From positions 2,803,134 through 2,867,133 of the forward strand of contig NZ_CP076718.1 of assembly GCF_011682235.2 (NCBI RefSeq): a stretch of DNA of 64,000 nt. Reading direction: 5' to 3'. The translations under genes and the position numbers were made by a program. The first letter of the stretch is position 1, and each line of letters begins with the position of its first letter. The notes under the pieces are model-generated. The model made no database searches. It was given only the letters and a program-made list of their open reading frames with translations, and was not told where the DNA came from. Source of the DNA: Rhodocaloribacter litoris (GTDB lineage: Bacteria; Bacteroidota; Rhodothermia; Rhodothermales; ISCAR-4553). Shown in pieces: positions 14,435-18,670 of the stretch.

Positions 14435-14937
14435 GGCGGGCCGCGGCGTACCCGGCGTGCCAACGGGCGCCGGGCGTGATGCAGGCCCCGGCCGCCCGGG
14501 TTGCCCCGGAGGCCGTAATGTCGTACTTTGTACGCCGGTTCTCGAAGAAGCCGGTACAAGCGGACGTGTAGGGGCGTTCGGCCGGAGGGTCGCGTCACAG
14601 GCGGCGCGGCGTGGCCGTTGCGTCCGGCGTCCGACGTGTCCCCGCGCCGATGGCGAGGGATCTGTGGCCCATCGGATAGCACGTCTTCCTCCCCGATTTT
14701 CTTTCGGCAACCCGCCCTTTCTCCCTTCGCCCGGCATGCCGAAGAGAGGAAAGCACCCTGCTTTTGAAGCGTCGGGACGACTTGAAAACGGACGGCCGGG
14801 TGGAGACGATGGGCTTTTTCAGAAGACTCTTCGGAAGCATGCGGATGAACGGAGAGCCGTCCGGACCTGCCCTGCCGCTGCAGCACACGGCCGGACAAGC
14901 GACGACACACCCCCAACCACCCCGGGAGGAGCGACTG
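14435..14937. other. Intergenic stretch of about 500 bases
   Basis: GC-rich, with no frame that looks coding in codon use. It could hold an N-terminal extension of the next gene from an ATG at 14809 (MGFFRRLFGS, preceded by GGTGGAGACG). No terminator with a T-tract was found. Confidence 0.5.
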
Positions 14938-15351
14938 ATGGCTGAGGATCTCATTACGTCGGACAACCTGTCCGTCGATACGTTGCGGGCCACCTTCGAA
15001 GCCGCCTACATGGACGTTTCCCTGTCCGAAAGCGGGCATCTGCGTATCCGGGATGCCTGCATTGTGCTGGTCATTCCGGACATGGAGCGGAGAAACCGGA
15101 TTCGCCTTATGAGTGTTTTCGGCTTCAAGGACGGTACCAGCCCGATCGACCGGCTGCAATGTGTCAACCGCATCAACGACGAATACATCATGGTCTGTGC
15201 CAGCACCACGAACGACGGGCTTCTGCTCTTTCGCTACGACCTGATGCTGGACGGGGGGCTGCCCAGGAAGGCCCTGGTGCTGGCCGTCAAACGGTTTGCC
15301 TCCATCCCGCATGGCGCCATCCAGGAACACGGCGCCGGCATCGTCGAGTAG
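14938..15351 (+). CDS. YbjN-like domain protein
   Basis: Small cytoplasmic protein of 137 residues with the YbjN/type III chaperone-like fold pattern: RATFEAAYMDVSLSESGHLR, then ILVIPD-like strand (IVLVIPD), INRINDEYIMVCAS-like (VNRINDEYIMVCAS), and a helical C-terminus. Members of this family are linked to stress and motility phenotypes by an unknown mechanism. The start at 14938 follows a strong GGGAGGA 7 bases upstream. An in-frame ATG at 14809 would add 43 residues with rare AGA codons and is less likely. Confidence 0.65.
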   Translation: MAEDLITSDNLSVDTLRATFEAAYMDVSLSESGHLRIRDACIVLVIPDMERRNRIRLMSVFGFKDGTSPIDRLQCVNRINDEYIMVCASTTNDGLLLFRYDLMLDGGLPRKALVLAVKRFASIPHGAIQEHGAGIVE

Positions 15352-15379: not shown

Positions 15380-15401
15380 TTCTTCCCGGGGAAGAACTTT
15401 T
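15380..15401 (+). terminator. Hairpin terminator after the YbjN-like gene
   Basis: TTCTTCCC (15380-15387) / GGGAAGAA (15389-15396) around a single central base, followed by CTTTT. The stem is perfect but the loop is tight, so the terminator may be modest. Confidence 0.5.
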
Positions 15402-15474
15402 GGAAAGACCGGTCGTAGATTATGCCCGGTTTGCCCGATTCCCCTTACCTGAACAGTTCTATTTTCCATACGCG

Positions 15475-15573
15475 ATGCCTTTCCTCCGGACCATCCTGGC
15501 CTGCTGTTGTGCGATGTGTTGTTGTGCCCCCGGCCGGAGGGGAGGCGCGGTGACGCCGTCGCGATACGGATAG
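15475..15573 (+). CDS. Polycysteine leader peptide of the cysteine operon
   Basis: A 32-codon frame from ATG 15475 to TAG 15571 encodes MPFLRTILA, then three Cys codons (15502-15510), Ala-Met, three more Cys codons (15517-15525), then a Pro/Gly/Arg tail. Six cysteines in 32 residues, in two runs of three directly upstream of cysteine-biosynthesis genes, is the signature of an attenuation leader peptide. Low charged Cys-tRNA would stall the ribosome in these runs. No Shine-Dalgarno sequence precedes the ATG, so it may be leaderless or weakly translated. The peptide itself probably has no function. It is too short for normal gene calling. Confidence 0.85.
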   Translation: MPFLRTILACCCAMCCCAPGRRGGAVTPSRYG

Positions 15574-15645
15574 GCCCGGAAAGCTGACGATCGCGCTCAC
15601 ATTGCTGCCAGTGCCCCTCCCGGATTGCCGTGAGGGGCTTTTTTT
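15483..15645 (+). promoter_or_regulatory. Predicted cysteine-responsive transcription attenuator
   Basis: Four segments can form competing stems. Segment 1, CCTCCGG (15483-15489, inside the leader peptide), pairs perfectly with segment 2, CCGGAGG (15534-15540, just after the Cys codons). Segment 2, as CCGGAGGGG (15534-15542), can instead pair with segment 3 (15614-15623, CCCCTCCCGG) through nine pairs and one bulge. Segment 3 otherwise forms the terminator stem GCCCCTC (15613-15619) / GAGGGGC (15632-15638), followed by seven T (15639-15645). Stalling at the first Cys codons would cover segment 1, free segment 2 and prevent termination. The layout follows the trp/his model; the pairing was found by eye. 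Confidence 0.75.
15613..15645 (+). terminator. Attenuator terminator immediately before cysM
   Basis: Seven-bp GC-rich stem with a 12-base loop and seven consecutive T. The tract ends 5 bases before the cysM ATG at 15651. The GAGGGG of its 3' arm is also the only Shine-Dalgarno-like sequence before cysM, so the hairpin may hide the ribosome site as well. Confidence 0.85.
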
Positions 15646-15650
15646 GTTCC

Positions 15651-16628
15651 ATGACCCAGTCTCTGATGGAAGGCACACACGTTGATGTTCTGGCTTCCCC
15701 GGCCGGACGCGCCGGGGCGTTGCGTAACGGCGTGCTGCGCCGCATCGGGCGGACGCCGCTCGTCCGGCTGCGGCGGGTGACGGCGCACCTGCCCGAGACG
15801 GTGGCCGTCTATGCGAAGGCCGAGCACCTCAACCCGGGCGGTTCGGTCAAGGACCGGGCGGCGCTGGGCATGATCCGGGACGGGCTGCGCCGCGGGGCCC
15901 TCACGCCGGGCAAAACGCTCATCGACGCCACGAGCGGCAACACCGGCATCGCCTACGCCATGATCGGGGCGGCCCTGGGGATCCCGGTGACGCTGGCGCT
16001 GCCCGCCAACGCCTCCGCGGAACGGAAGCGGATCCTGGCCGCCTATGGCGTGGACCTGATCCTGACCGACCCGCTGGAGGGCACCGACGGGGCGCAGCGT
16101 TACGTGCGCGAGCGCGTCGCCGCCGAGCCCGACCGCTATTTCTACCCCGACCAGTACAACAACGACGCCAACTGGCGGGCGCACGCGCGCACCACCGGGG
16201 TCGAGATCCTCGAACAGACGCGCCACCGCGTCACGCACTTCGTCGCCGGGCTGGGCACGACGGGCACCTTCACCGGCGTCACGCGGCGCCTCAAGGCGTT
16301 CGACCCCGCCATCCGCTGCTTCTCCGTCCAGCCGGACAGCCCGCTGCACGGTATGGAAGGGCTCAAGCACATGGAGACGGCCCTCGTGCCGGGCATCTAC
16401 GACCCGGCGCTGGCCGACGACGACCTGCGGGTGCAGACGGAGGAGGCCTATGCCATGACGCGTCGCCTGGCCCGGGAGGAAGGGCTCCTCGTGGGCATCT
16501 CCTCCGGGGCCAACGTGGCGGCGGCCCTCCGCGTGGCCGAGACGCTCCGCGAGGGCGTCGTCGTGACGATCCTGTGCGACACCGGTACCCGGTATCTGAG
16601 CGATCCATTCTGGAACGAAACGCTGTGA
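15651..16628 (+). CDS. cysM: Cysteine synthase, CysM type
   Basis: PLP enzyme that makes cysteine by beta-replacement. The PLP Lys lies in NPGGSVKDRAALG, the substrate Ser/Asn loop in DATSGNTGIAYA, and the phosphate-binding loop in AGLGTTGTFTGV. The C-terminal half (HMETALVPGIYDP, ISSGANVAAALRV) resembles mycobacterial CysM, which uses a thiocarboxylated carrier protein as sulfur donor and O-phosphoserine as acceptor. The neighbouring protease, carrier and activator support that version of the pathway; the acceptor cannot be read from sequence. The start at 15651 lies directly after the attenuator; an ATG at 15666 is possible. The protein has 325 residues. Confidence 0.92.
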   Translation: MTQSLMEGTHVDVLASPAGRAGALRNGVLRRIGRTPLVRLRRVTAHLPETVAVYAKAEHLNPGGSVKDRAALGMIRDGLRRGALTPGKTLIDATSGNTGIAYAMIGAALGIPVTLALPANASAERKRILAAYGVDLILTDPLEGTDGAQRYVRERVAAEPDRYFYPDQYNNDANWRAHARTTGVEILEQTRHRVTHFVAGLGTTGTFTGVTRRLKAFDPAIRCFSVQPDSPLHGMEGLKHMETALVPGIYDPALADDDLRVQTEEAYAMTRRLAREEGLLVGISSGANVAAALRVAETLREGVVVTILCDTGTRYLSDPFWNETL

Positions 16629-16636
16629 GGCCATCC

Positions 16637-17089
16637 ATGCTGACCCATACCGCCGTCCTCGACGCGATCCGGGAGCACGGGCGCGACACGTACCCGGAGG
16701 AATGCTGCGGCTTCCTGCTGGGCACCTTCGCGCCGGAGGGCAACCGGGTGGTGGCCGTGCAACGCGTGCCCAACCGGCGGGCCGAGCACCGCGAGCGCCG
16801 TTATACCATCGCGCCGGAGGACTACCGCCACGCCGAGCGGGCCGCCCGGGGCCTGGGCCTCGACGTCGTCGGCTTCTACCATTCCCACCCGGACCACCCC
16901 GCCCGGCCCTCGGCCACCGACCTGGCCGAAGCCACCTTCCCCGGCTATACGTACGTGATCGTCGCCGTCCGCGACGGCGTCCCCGCCGACCTGACGGCCT
17001 GGTCCCTCGCCCCGGACCGCTCCCGGTTCCTCCCCGAGGCGATCACCGTCGACGACGAAGCCCTGCGTGCGGCACAGGCCGAAGGATGA
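16637..17089 (+). CDS. mec: JAMM/MPN+ metalloprotease (Mec-like)
   Basis: Zinc protease expected to release cysteine from the carrier protein, or to trim the carrier tail. The complete JAMM motif is visible: Glu in PEECCGFLLG, then HSHPDHPARPSATDLAEA with two zinc His, the conserved Ser and the zinc Asp. At 150 residues the length is normal for Mec. It starts 8 bases after cysM stops and is clearly cotranscribed. Confidence 0.92.
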   Translation: MLTHTAVLDAIREHGRDTYPEECCGFLLGTFAPEGNRVVAVQRVPNRRAEHRERRYTIAPEDYRHAERAARGLGLDVVGFYHSHPDHPARPSATDLAEATFPGYTYVIVAVRDGVPADLTAWSLAPDRSRFLPEAITVDDEALRAAQAEG

Positions 17090-17146: not shown

Positions 17147-17443
17147 ATGAGCACGACGCAGACCCTGACCGCGATCCACATCCCGACGCCGCTGCGGGCG
17201 TTCACCGGCAACCAGGCGACCGTGGAGGTGGCCGGCGAGACCGTGCGTGAGGCGCTGGCCGACCTCGTCGCCCGGCACCCGGCGCTGAAGAACCACCTGT
17301 TCGACGAGGCGGGCCGGCTCCGCTCGTTCGTCAACGTGTACGTCGGCGACGAGGACATCCGCTACCTCGACGGCCCGGCGACCGCCCTCAAGCCCGGCGA
17401 CACGCTCTCCATCGTCCCGTCCATCGCCGGGGGGCGCGGGTGA
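17147..17443 (+). CDS. cysO: Ubiquitin-like sulfur carrier protein (MoaD/CysO family)
   Basis: Carrier whose C-terminal Gly would be adenylated and thiocarboxylated by the MoeZ-like enzyme, then used by CysM. It has 98 residues and a beta-grasp fold pattern (IHIPTPLRAFTGNQATVEV, VNVYVGDEDIRYLDG, LKPGDTLSIVPSIAGG). The mature carrier should end in Gly-Gly, but here the frame continues with Arg-Gly before the stop (end IAGGRG). The two extra residues would need removal before activation, and the JAMM protease next door is the obvious candidate. Confidence 0.9.
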   Translation: MSTTQTLTAIHIPTPLRAFTGNQATVEVAGETVREALADLVARHPALKNHLFDEAGRLRSFVNVYVGDEDIRYLDGPATALKPGDTLSIVPSIAGGRG

Positions 17444-17491: not shown

Positions 17492-18670
17492 ATGGAAACC
17501 ATCTCCGCTCCGAACGTGACGCTCTCGCCCGAGGAGGTGCGGCGCTACAGCCGCCACCTGATCCTGCCCGAGGTGGGGCTGGAGGGGCAGAAGAAACTCA
17601 AGGCCGCCTCGGTGCTGCTCATCGGTGCGGGCGGCCTCGGCTCGCCGCTGGCGCTCTACCTGGCCGCCGCCGGCGTGGGTCGCCTCGGCCTGGTCGACTT
17701 CGACGTGGTCGACGAGTCGAACCTGCAACGGCAGGTGCTCCACGGCACGAAGGACGTCGGTCGCTCGAAGCTCGCCTCCGCCCGCGAGCGCATCCTCGAC
17801 ATCAACCCGCACGTGGAGGTGGAGACGTACGAGACGCGCCTCACCAGCGAGAACGCGCTCGACCTCATCGGGGCCTACGACCTGGTAGCCGACGGCACGG
17901 ACAATTTCCCCACGCGCTACCTGGTCAACGACGCCTCGGTGCTCACCGGCACGCCGAACATGTACGCCTCCATCTTCCGCTTCGAGGGGCAGGTGTCGGT
18001 CTTCGGCGCGCCGGACGGGCCGTGCTACCGCTGCCTCTACCCCGAGCCGCCGCCGCCGGGGCTGGTGCCCTCGTGCGCCGAGGGCGGGGTGCTGGGCGTG
18101 CTGCCGGGTATCGTCGGGGCGCTGCAGGCCACCGAGGTCATCAAGTGGATCGTGGGCGCCGGGGAGCCGCTCGTGGGGCGGTTGCTCCTCTTCGACGCCC
18201 TCACGATGACGTTCCGCACGCTCAAGGTGCGCAAGAACCCGGACTGCCCGGTCTGCGGCACGCACCCGACCGTCACGGCGTTGATCGACTACGAGGCGTT
18301 CTGCGGCATCCCGCAGGCCCGTGCTGCCGCGTCGGCCGAAGCGGACGCGGTGCCCGAGATCACCGTTACCGAGCTGAAGGCCCGCCTCGACCGCGGCGAG
18401 CGTCCCTTCATCCTCGACGTCCGGAAGCCGCACGAGTACGAGATCGCCAACCTGGGCGCGCCGCTCATCCCCGTCGATGAACTGGCCGACCGCCTGGACG
18501 AACTCGCCCCGTACCGGGATCAGGAGATCATCGTGCACTGTCGCTCCGGCGCCCGCTCGGCCCGGGCCGTGAAGCTGTTGCGCGAGCACGGCTTCCACGG
18601 GGCCGTCAACCTCAAGGGCGGCATCCTGGCCTGGAGCGACGAGGTCGACCCGGGCGTGCCGAAGTACTGA
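17492..18670 (+). CDS. moeZ: Carrier-protein adenylyltransferase/sulfurtransferase with rhodanese domain (MoeZ type)
   Basis: Activates the carrier by adenylation and passes sulfur to it. The N-terminal MoeB/ThiF/E1-like domain (about 10-270) has the nucleotide-binding GAGGLGSP, Arg finger region NLQRQVLHGTKDVGRSK and DGTDNFPTRYLVND. Zinc-binding CxxC pairs are CYRC and CPVC. The rhodanese domain (about 290-392) carries a catalytic Cys in IVHCRSGARSARAV. The length of 392 residues is normal. It follows the carrier by 48 bases and ends the predicted operon. Confidence 0.93.
   Translation: METISAPNVTLSPEEVRRYSRHLILPEVGLEGQKKLKAASVLLIGAGGLGSPLALYLAAAGVGRLGLVDFDVVDESNLQRQVLHGTKDVGRSKLASARERILDINPHVEVETYETRLTSENALDLIGAYDLVADGTDNFPTRYLVNDASVLTGTPNMYASIFRFEGQVSVFGAPDGPCYRCLYPEPPPPGLVPSCAEGGVLGVLPGIVGALQATEVIKWIVGAGEPLVGRLLLFDALTMTFRTLKVRKNPDCPVCGTHPTVTALIDYEAFCGIPQARAAASAEADAVPEITVTELKARLDRGERPFILDVRKPHEYEIANLGAPLIPVDELADRLDELAPYRDQEIIVHCRSGARSARAVKLLREHGFHGAVNLKGGILAWSDEVDPGVPKY

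What the first reader, a model, noticed from the sequence alone, without database searches (positions are those of the whole stretch)
15475..15645. Polycysteine leader peptide and attenuator before a carrier-protein cysteine operon
Seen directly: a 32-codon frame with two runs of three Cys codons. A competing RNA pair (15483-15489 with 15534-15540, versus 15534-15542 with 15614-15623) follows, and a seven-T terminator ends 5 bases before the cysM start. Known: trp, his and similar operons use this arrangement, and polycysteine leader ORFs have been described in mycobacteria. Inferred: when charged Cys-tRNA is scarce the ribosome stalls on the Cys runs, segment 2 is freed, the terminator is prevented, and cysM-mec-cysO-moeZ is expressed. 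I know of no description of this in Rhodothermota.
Basis: partly seen in the sequence, partly recalled or inferred. Interest (0 to 1): 0.94.

Follow-up and report, generated by a model that had tools for sequence, protein, structure and literature searches.

The report
Cysteine-sensing RNA switch before cysteine genes
Just before this bacterium's cysteine-making genes lie a short reading frame packed with cysteine codons and a predicted RNA terminator that likely let the genes be read only when cysteine runs short; the same layout stands before these genes in all 38 relatives of its order in which the search found cysM followed by mec.

Summary
The 32-codon frame (15475-15573), its six Cys codons, the competing segments and the seven-T hairpin are real; cysM more likely starts at 15666 than 15651. 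In Rhodothermales, 39 of 41 cysM loci (window included) have a Cys-rich frame followed by a T-tailed hairpin; all 39 have mec behind cysM, and the 2 without the layout lack it. Such hairpins occur in 39 of 41 on this strand, 2 of 41 on the other. Terminator arms covary. The segment after the Cys codons fits its own terminator arm better than those of other genera (p = 0.001, 18 genera); 15 loci outside the order, chosen by rule, repeat this (0 of 20,000 permutations). Leader Cys codons are 80% TGT, in cysM 15%. A SigH/SigR-like promoter motif precedes 31 of 38 leaders. Polycysteine leaders in print, as far as I could see, are actinobacterial and described without clear terminators, so this is a new variant of a known kind. 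Nothing is tested by experiment; the shielding 1:2 hairpin is not shown to be general.

The parts
15394..15417 (+). SigH/SigR-like (ECF-type) promoter motif GAAC-N17-GTA, candidate promoter of the leader RNA
   Evidence: GAAC 15394-15397, GTA 15415-15417; GAAC-N17/18-GT[TA] upstream of 31 of 38 Rhodothermales leaders (39th too short), 4 of 38 on the reverse strand, 0.96 expected from shuffles; the pattern was chosen after seeing the sequences
15475..15573 (+). leader ORF, 32 codons, MPFLRTILACCCAMCCCAPGRRGGAVTPSRYG
   Evidence: Cys-rich frame at the same place in 39 of 41 loci of the order, window included
15502..15525 (+). two runs of three Cys codons (15502-15510, 15517-15525), 5 of 6 TGT
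15483..15489 (+). segment 1, pairs with segment 2 (shielding hairpin)
   Evidence: CCTCCGG/CCGGAGG, -12.7 kcal/mol; for this locus the own pairing beats the cross-genus pairings (fraction as good 0.00); not significant over all genera (p = 0.055)
15534..15542 (+). segment 2, CCGGAGGGG, antiterminator strand
   Evidence: pairs with 15614-15623, -22.9 kcal/mol with flanks; locus-specific match to the terminator arm over 18 genera, p = 0.001; for the window locus alone 32% of foreign arms fit as well
15613..15645 (+). predicted intrinsic terminator: GCCCCTC...GAGGGGC (15613-15638) plus T7; the 5' arm (15614-15623) is segment 3
   Evidence: -18.6 kcal/mol; arms covary in relatives
15666..16628 (+). 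cysM, CysM-type cysteine synthase (PALP family); start revised from 15651
   Evidence: PF00291 1.8e-72; TIGR01138 361.7 bits, below its 394.2 cut-off; start by comparison with relatives
16637..17089 (+). mec, JAB-domain metallohydrolase
   Evidence: Prok-JAB 2.8e-26 (on the longer frame 16574-17086); desampylase NF041370 96 bits, below its cut-off
17147..17443 (+). cysO, ThiS/MoaD-type sulfur carrier protein
   Evidence: ThiS 2.3e-13; NF041918 62.6 bits, above its cut-off of 60; matches 3dwg chain C at 2.2e-19
17492..18670 (+). moeZ, ThiF adenylyltransferase with rhodanese domain
   Evidence: ThiF 2.2e-86, Rhodanese 5.3e-15

Best explanation
This is a likely cysteine-responsive transcription attenuator: a 32-codon leader ORF with two runs of three Cys codons and a predicted intrinsic terminator lie directly before cysM-mec-cysO-moeZ, and a ribosome that stalls on the Cys codons is predicted to let RNA segment 2 pair with the terminator's 5' arm, so that transcription would run on into the operon. 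When charged Cys-tRNA is plentiful, the ribosome would run through segment 2 to the stop codon, which lies 25-42 nt before the terminator in the 39 loci with the layout; the 5' arm would then be free and the hairpin would form and stop transcription. Shown by sequence: ORF, Cys runs, complementary segments, hairpin with T-tail, and their conservation and covariation. Inferred: translation of the ORF, stalling, termination, and the response to cysteine. A SigH/SigR-like promoter motif before the leader suggests (inferred) that a stress sigma factor sets the input and the attenuator the gain.
For: (1) Position: 39 of 41 Rhodothermales cysM loci (window included) have a Cys-rich short frame (at least 3 Cys in 8 codons; at least 4 in 34) followed by a T-tailed hairpin of -12.0 to -23.3 kcal/mol; last Cys to hairpin 62-94 nt, stop to hairpin 25-42 nt. 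All 39 have mec behind cysM; the 2 without the layout, L034 and L116, have no mec there. (2) Strand controls: at least 4 Cys in 8 codons within 500 nt upstream (208 nt for L024) in 34 of 41 forward, 5 of 41 reverse; T-tailed hairpin of -12 or better in 39 of 41 forward, 2 of 41 reverse. (3) Rarity: the composite signature (at least 4 Cys) is found upstream of cysM in 56 of 191 loci, duplicates included, but twice elsewhere in 1.85 million strand-bases, one of these being a real-looking attenuator before a rhodanese-cysM-mec operon (L137); one hit in the window. (4) Terminator covariation: 24 of 39 hairpins aligned, 93.2% of cells paired, 4 of 8 pairs with changes on both sides (5 of 500 shuffles reach that), covariation score reached by 0 of 500. 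(5) Antiterminator: segment 2 fits its own terminator arm better than those of other genera, p = 0.001. Outside the order, 15 loci chosen by rule (at least 4 Cys) give 0 of 20,000 permutations, 21 loci with at least 3 Cys likewise, and so did an earlier set of 19 picked by eye. (6) Modelled ribosome positions over 39 loci: terminator arm occluded 0.81 with the ribosome at the first Cys, 0.07 with it at the stop, 0.49 with shuffled leaders (observed above control in 35 of 39); window 0.85, 0.24, and 0.13 with no ribosome. (7) Cys codons in leaders are TGT in 156 of 196, in cysM 17 of 114, in long window ORFs 26 of 113. (8) The operon is a cysteine-synthesis operon.
Against: The 1:2 shielding stem is not significant across genera (p = 0.055), and without a ribosome the arm is occluded 0.60 on average, so termination in the untranslated state is not predicted for all. 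With the ribosome at the last Cys codon occlusion falls to 0.57. At equilibrium the terminator often still wins in the stalled state (mean 0.56; L007 0.87; window 0.39), so the model needs kinetics. The whole leader folds no better than many shuffles. In 9 of 39 loci (L015, L027, L030, L032, L035, L117, L121, L123, L126) the own-arm pairing is weaker than the mean with foreign arms, and for the window 32% of foreign arms fit as well. Only 3 of 38 leaders have a Shine-Dalgarno-like core, so translation of the ORF is assumed. Outside Rhodothermales most cysM loci seen lack the signature (5 of 76 and 10 of 58 have it). No transcript data.
Confidence: 0.88

Rival explanations
1. Translational attenuation, as described for mycobacterial polycysteine leaders: the hairpin would mask the ribosome-binding site of cysM, and stalling on the Cys codons would unmask it; the T-run is incidental.
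For: Polycysteine leaders in M. smegmatis are reported to act at translation (PMC13236596, passages; PMC9031893, passages). The hairpin to cysM-ATG spacing is 27-28 nt in the window and in seven of nine relatives checked.
Against: A strong hairpin with a T-run stands here in 39 of 41 loci, against 2 of 41 on the other strand, and at about 27 nt it lies upstream of the usual initiation footprint (recalled). Spacing to cysM is not fixed over the order: 66 to 222 nt from the hairpin to residue 28. A T-tailed hairpin is also kept in other groups.
Confidence: 0.05
2. An ordinary terminator of the upstream YbjN-domain gene (14764-15351), with a chance Cys-rich frame in front of it.
For: The upstream gene is on the same strand and ends about 260 nt before the hairpin. 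Paired Cys triplets as such are not rare in the genome.
Against: Cys-rich frame and hairpin stay together before cysM-mec in 39 of 39 loci, the composite occurs once in the window, the forward bias is 34 to 5, and segment 2 goes with the terminator arm.
Confidence: 0.02
3. A functional Cys-rich peptide (metal-binding or redox-active) encoded before the operon.
For: High cysteine content in the leaders.
Against: Spacing and context of the Cys residues are not conserved (CCCAMCCC, CCCCCC, CRCWCRCC, CPCCCPC). The strong TGT preference and the RNA complementarity point to the codons and the RNA, not to the peptide.
Confidence: 0.03

Closest known systems
Leader-peptide transcription attenuators (trp, his, leu, ilv type)
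   Same: Short ORF rich in codons of the regulated amino acid, intrinsic terminator before the first gene, alternative antiterminator pairing
   Different: Amino acid is cysteine; the antiterminator strand lies inside the ORF and the stop codon follows it (in E. coli trpL, from recall, the stop lies between segments 1 and 2); the shielding stem is not shown to be general; host groups are Rhodothermota, Acidobacteriota and Ignavibacteria-type bacteria
Actinobacterial polycysteine leader ORFs (Mycobacterium, Propionibacterium cys operons, B. longum cbs)
   Same: Runs of Cys codons in a short ORF before cysteine genes (PMC1262725, passages); in M. tuberculosis mec-cysO-cysM is also a direct SigH target (PMC4803200, passages)
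   Different: Published as lacking obvious or conserved terminator hairpins, with Cys runs near the stop codon, and in M. smegmatis as acting at translation; here a terminator and antiterminator are conserved and the Cys runs lie well before the stop
ilvB1 leader attenuator of mycobacteria
   Same: uORF, antiterminator and terminator logic (PMC13236596, passages)
   Different: Branched-chain amino acid codons and genes

Membership tests
Ribosome-mediated transcription attenuator | Short ORF enriched in codons of the amino acid made by the operon | tested here: met
   39 of 41 loci with at least 3 Cys in 8 codons, 34 with at least 4
Ribosome-mediated transcription attenuator | Intrinsic terminator between the ORF and the first gene | tested here: met
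   predicted in 39 of 41, -12.0 to -23.3 kcal/mol with a T-tail; 2 of 41 on the reverse strand; covariation
Ribosome-mediated transcription attenuator | Antiterminator pairing exclusive with the terminator | tested here: met
   p = 0.001 over 18 genera; 0 of 20,000 permutations in 15 rule-chosen outside loci; 9 of 39 single loci show no advantage
Ribosome-mediated transcription attenuator | 1:2 shielding hairpin | tested here: inconclusive
   strong in the window and g24, p = 0.055 over genera
Ribosome-mediated transcription attenuator | Read-through responds to the amino acid | not testable with these tools
   needs transcript data
Actinobacterial polycysteine leaders (mycobacterial type) | No obvious intrinsic terminator behind the leader ORF (as published) | tested here: not met
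   predicted terminator in 39 of 41
Actinobacterial polycysteine leaders (mycobacterial type) | Control at translation of the downstream gene | not testable with these tools
   needs expression data
Actinobacterial polycysteine leaders (mycobacterial type) | Leaderless ORF (transcript starts at the AUG) | tested here: inconclusive
   the promoter motif starts 81 nt upstream of the ATG, which would give a 5' UTR of about 50 nt; no start-site data
T-box or other Rfam riboswitch | Match to the family model | tested here: not met
   0 gathering-threshold matches in the window

The most novel reading that the evidence does not exclude
A terminator-type cysteine attenuator is a widespread, so far undescribed control element of carrier-protein (CysO) cysteine synthesis in at least two bacterial phyla, and in Rhodothermales it is joined to a SigH/SigR-like stress promoter, making an AND gate in which thiol stress calls for cysteine synthesis but transcription proceeds only if Cys-tRNA is truly short.
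Probability: 0.5. Interest if true: 0.75.

Novelty: new variant of a known kind. Interest (0 to 1): 0.68.

Why it matters
It would extend leader-peptide attenuation to Rhodothermota and Acidobacteriota; a 2010 survey knew of no leader-peptide system outside Proteobacteria and Actinobacteria before its own Firmicutes case (PMC2965389, passages). It gives cysteine a classic terminator-type attenuator and ties the CysO carrier-protein route to Cys-tRNA supply. The actinobacterial and rhodothermal operons would then use the same logic (stress sigma plus Cys codons) with different RNA outputs, which is a testable case of convergence or ancient sharing.

Tried and rejected
Rfam scan of the window: nothing. 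The consensus promoter and terminator scan found neither here. Whole-leader folding against shuffles: not significant. Reverse-strand Cys frames in genus g24: no tRNA gene in those loci; left unexplained. A pattern search of the own genome for two Cys triplets gave 6 rows (two overlap) against 5 for the reversed control; the places other than the leader lie inside open frames of 340-845 aa, one of them (L127) with a T-tailed hairpin of -13.2 within 200 nt. The second PALP enzyme (L002) is by NCBIfam a cystathionine beta-synthase; my first look upstream of it read the wrong flank, the repeat found at most 2 Cys in 8 codons. The first strand counts took minus-strand loci unflipped and are superseded. 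A strict promoter pattern with CGT (10 of 38, 0.90 expected) was replaced by GAAC-N17/18-GT[TA] (31 of 38) after looking at the sequences, so its significance is optimistic. The 19 outside loci were picked by eye; one (L165) has 2 and three (L167, L175, L201) have 3 Cys in 8 codons, and L077 and some 3-Cys loci were left out; one search replaces this by a rule. An alignment of wrongly cut hairpins was discarded.

Full report
Observation. The operon is cysM (PALP), mec (Prok-JAB), cysO (ThiS) and moeZ (ThiF plus rhodanese); the CysO-like protein matches chain C of 3dwg. From recall, that entry is the mycobacterial CysM-CysO complex. I place the cysM start at 15666: of nine relatives checked, seven have an in-frame ATG 27-28 nt after the hairpin, L013 has ATGs at 31 and 34 nt and L014 at 43 nt.

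Relatives. The search of the order covered 114 genomes, the window's own included; 41 have this CysM at E <= 1e-70. The order contains Roseithermus sacchariphilus: locus L014 of genome G034 and named locus L036 lie on contigs of equal length at matching coordinates, and that species is Rhodothermota, Rhodothermales. After orienting the loci, at least 4 Cys in 8 codons occur within 500 nt upstream of cysM in 34 of 41 loci on the forward and 5 of 41 on the reverse strand (L024 has only 208 nt). With a threshold of 3, and a T-tailed hairpin required, 39 of 41 have the layout. A hairpin of -12 kcal/mol or better with a T-tail is found in the 330 nt before cysM residue 28 in 39 of 41 on the forward and 2 of 41 on the reverse strand. 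The two loci without the layout, L034 and L116, have no mec behind cysM, whereas all 39 do; cysO and moeZ follow in all 29 of those 39 whose fetched DNA reaches them. Geometry is tight: last Cys to hairpin 62-94 nt, stop to hairpin 25-42 nt.

Chance. The composite signature (at least 4 Cys in 8 codons, then a hairpin of -12 kcal/mol or better at 45-140 nt) occurs in the 420 nt upstream of cysM in 56 of 191 loci, duplicates included, and twice elsewhere in 1.85 million strand-bases. One of the two (L137) is itself a convincing attenuator before a rhodanese gene that precedes cysM-mec. With identical cysM genes counted once: 34 of 41 in the order, 5 of 76 further loci of the named search, 10 of 58 loci of the phylum and class searches. 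So outside Rhodothermales the element is present but in a minority of the cysM loci seen. In the window it occurs once. Two Cys triplets alone are no signal: 6 rows in the own genome against 5 for the reversed control, the others inside long open frames.

Mechanism tests. Terminator: in 24 aligned hairpins (of 39), 93.2% of cells pair, four of eight pairs change on both sides (C-G, U-A and G-C at one position; 5 of 500 shuffles reach four), the covariation score is reached by none of 500, and the count of further pair types by 45 of 500. Antiterminator: the RNA just after the Cys codons pairs with its own terminator arm at -22.0 kcal/mol on average over genera against -19.5 when arms are exchanged between genera (p = 0.001, 18 genera). 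Single loci vary: in 9 of 39 the own pairing is weaker than the mean with foreign arms, and for the window, whose segment 2 is very G-rich, 32% of foreign arms fit as well. Outside the order I first tested 19 loci picked by eye for a Cys cluster and a hairpin (12 from the class of a Pyrinomonadaceae genome, 7 from the class of an Ignavibacteriae genome): -18.4 against -13.8 (0 of 20,000); I had noticed the match in one of them (L073) beforehand. With loci chosen by rule the result is the same: 15 loci with at least 4 Cys, -18.6 against -13.9; 21 loci with at least 3 Cys, -18.9 against -14.5; 0 of 20,000 in both. Some of these loci are relatives of each other. The shielding stem 1:2 is strong in the window and in genus g24 but p = 0.055 over all genera.

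Ribosome positions. Folding the RNA downstream of a ribosome at the first Cys codon, before the 3' arm is made, the terminator 5' arm is occluded by upstream RNA with mean probability 0.81; at the last Cys codon 0.57; with the ribosome at the stop 0.07; with the leader shuffled 0.49 (observed above control in 35 of 39 loci); with no ribosome 0.60 (39 loci). In the window the values are 0.85 (first Cys), 0.78 (last Cys), 0.24 (stop), 0.13 (no ribosome). At equilibrium the terminator wins often even when stalled (mean 0.56), so the switch must be set during transcription. These are energy models, not measurements.

Codons. Leader Cys codons are TGT in 156 of 196; the cysM genes of the same loci use TGT in 17 of 114, and long ORFs of the window in 26 of 113. 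A less used codon at the sensing site fits stalling.

Wider distribution. Named loci with the composite include Acidobacteriota (L047; L049, Pyrinomonadaceae), a Bacteroidota bin (L066), an Ignavibacteriae bin (L073) and a Chloroflexi bin (L077, without mec). In L047 and L049 a Cys/Met-metabolism PLP enzyme lies between cysM and mec. Some others (L068, L090, L108) have Cys runs at or near the stop codon and no strong hairpin, more like the actinobacterial form.

Promoter. GAAC-N17/18-GT[TA] lies upstream of 31 of 38 leaders, 4 of 38 on the reverse strand, 0.96 expected from shuffles. SigH of M. tuberculosis reads GGAAYR-N17-GTT and directly controls mec-cysO-cysM (PMC4803200, passages). The pattern was set after seeing the sequences, and no sigma factor was looked for here.

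Pathway. The own genome has no match to the cysE model above its cut-off (best 48 bits against 210.65), but the cut-off is strict: only 8 of 14 control genomes pass it. A PAPS-reductase-family protein is present.

Literature. PMC1262725 (passages) predicts Cys leader peptides in Actinobacteria without obvious terminators. PMC13236596 and PMC9031893 (passages) and PMC9094748 (passages) cite Canestrari et al. 2020, which is not held, for cysteine-responsive attenuation in mycobacteria. [quoted passage not shown] PMC4833913 (passages) has no occurrence of cysteine in its main text. Ten searches (listings only, at most 20 rows each, apart from the papers named) showed no terminator-type cysteine attenuator and none in Rhodothermota. 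Subscription papers were mostly not searchable, so priority is not excluded.

Verdict. A terminator-type, cysteine-codon transcription attenuator is the best explanation (0.88). It works like trp/his attenuators; it is not filed with the actinobacterial polycysteine type as published, because the terminator feature differs. Novelty: new variant of a known kind.

Noticed in passing
window 15394-15417 and the same place in 31 of 38 loci of the order: SigH/SigR-like promoter motif GAAC-N17/18-GT[TA] before the leader; possible thiol-stress input.
   Followed up: partly
window 17147-17443; L007-L035: CysO ends in GG in 18 of 29 loci of the order and has 1-9 further residues in 11 (AGGRG in the window; AGGRL, AGGHF, AGGKSR and others). 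The carrier may need trimming, perhaps by the neighbouring JAB protein.
   Followed up: partly
L137:148-250: A Cys-codon attenuator precedes a two-domain rhodanese gene placed before cysM-mec, so the element can sit at the head of the operon with another first gene.
   Followed up: partly
L068, L090, L108 upstream of cysM: Cys runs at or near the stop codon and no strong T-tailed hairpin: possible translational or Rho-type variant as in mycobacteria.
   Followed up: no
L009, L010, L012, L013, reverse strand about 400-440 nt upstream of cysM: Short frames ending in Cys-Cys on the opposite strand in g24 genomes; no tRNA there; meaning unknown.
   Followed up: partly
own genome G000: No serine acetyltransferase (cysE) above the strict model cut-off but a PAPS-reductase-family protein, so cysM may be the main cysteine synthase, possibly using O-phosphoserine.
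   Followed up: partly
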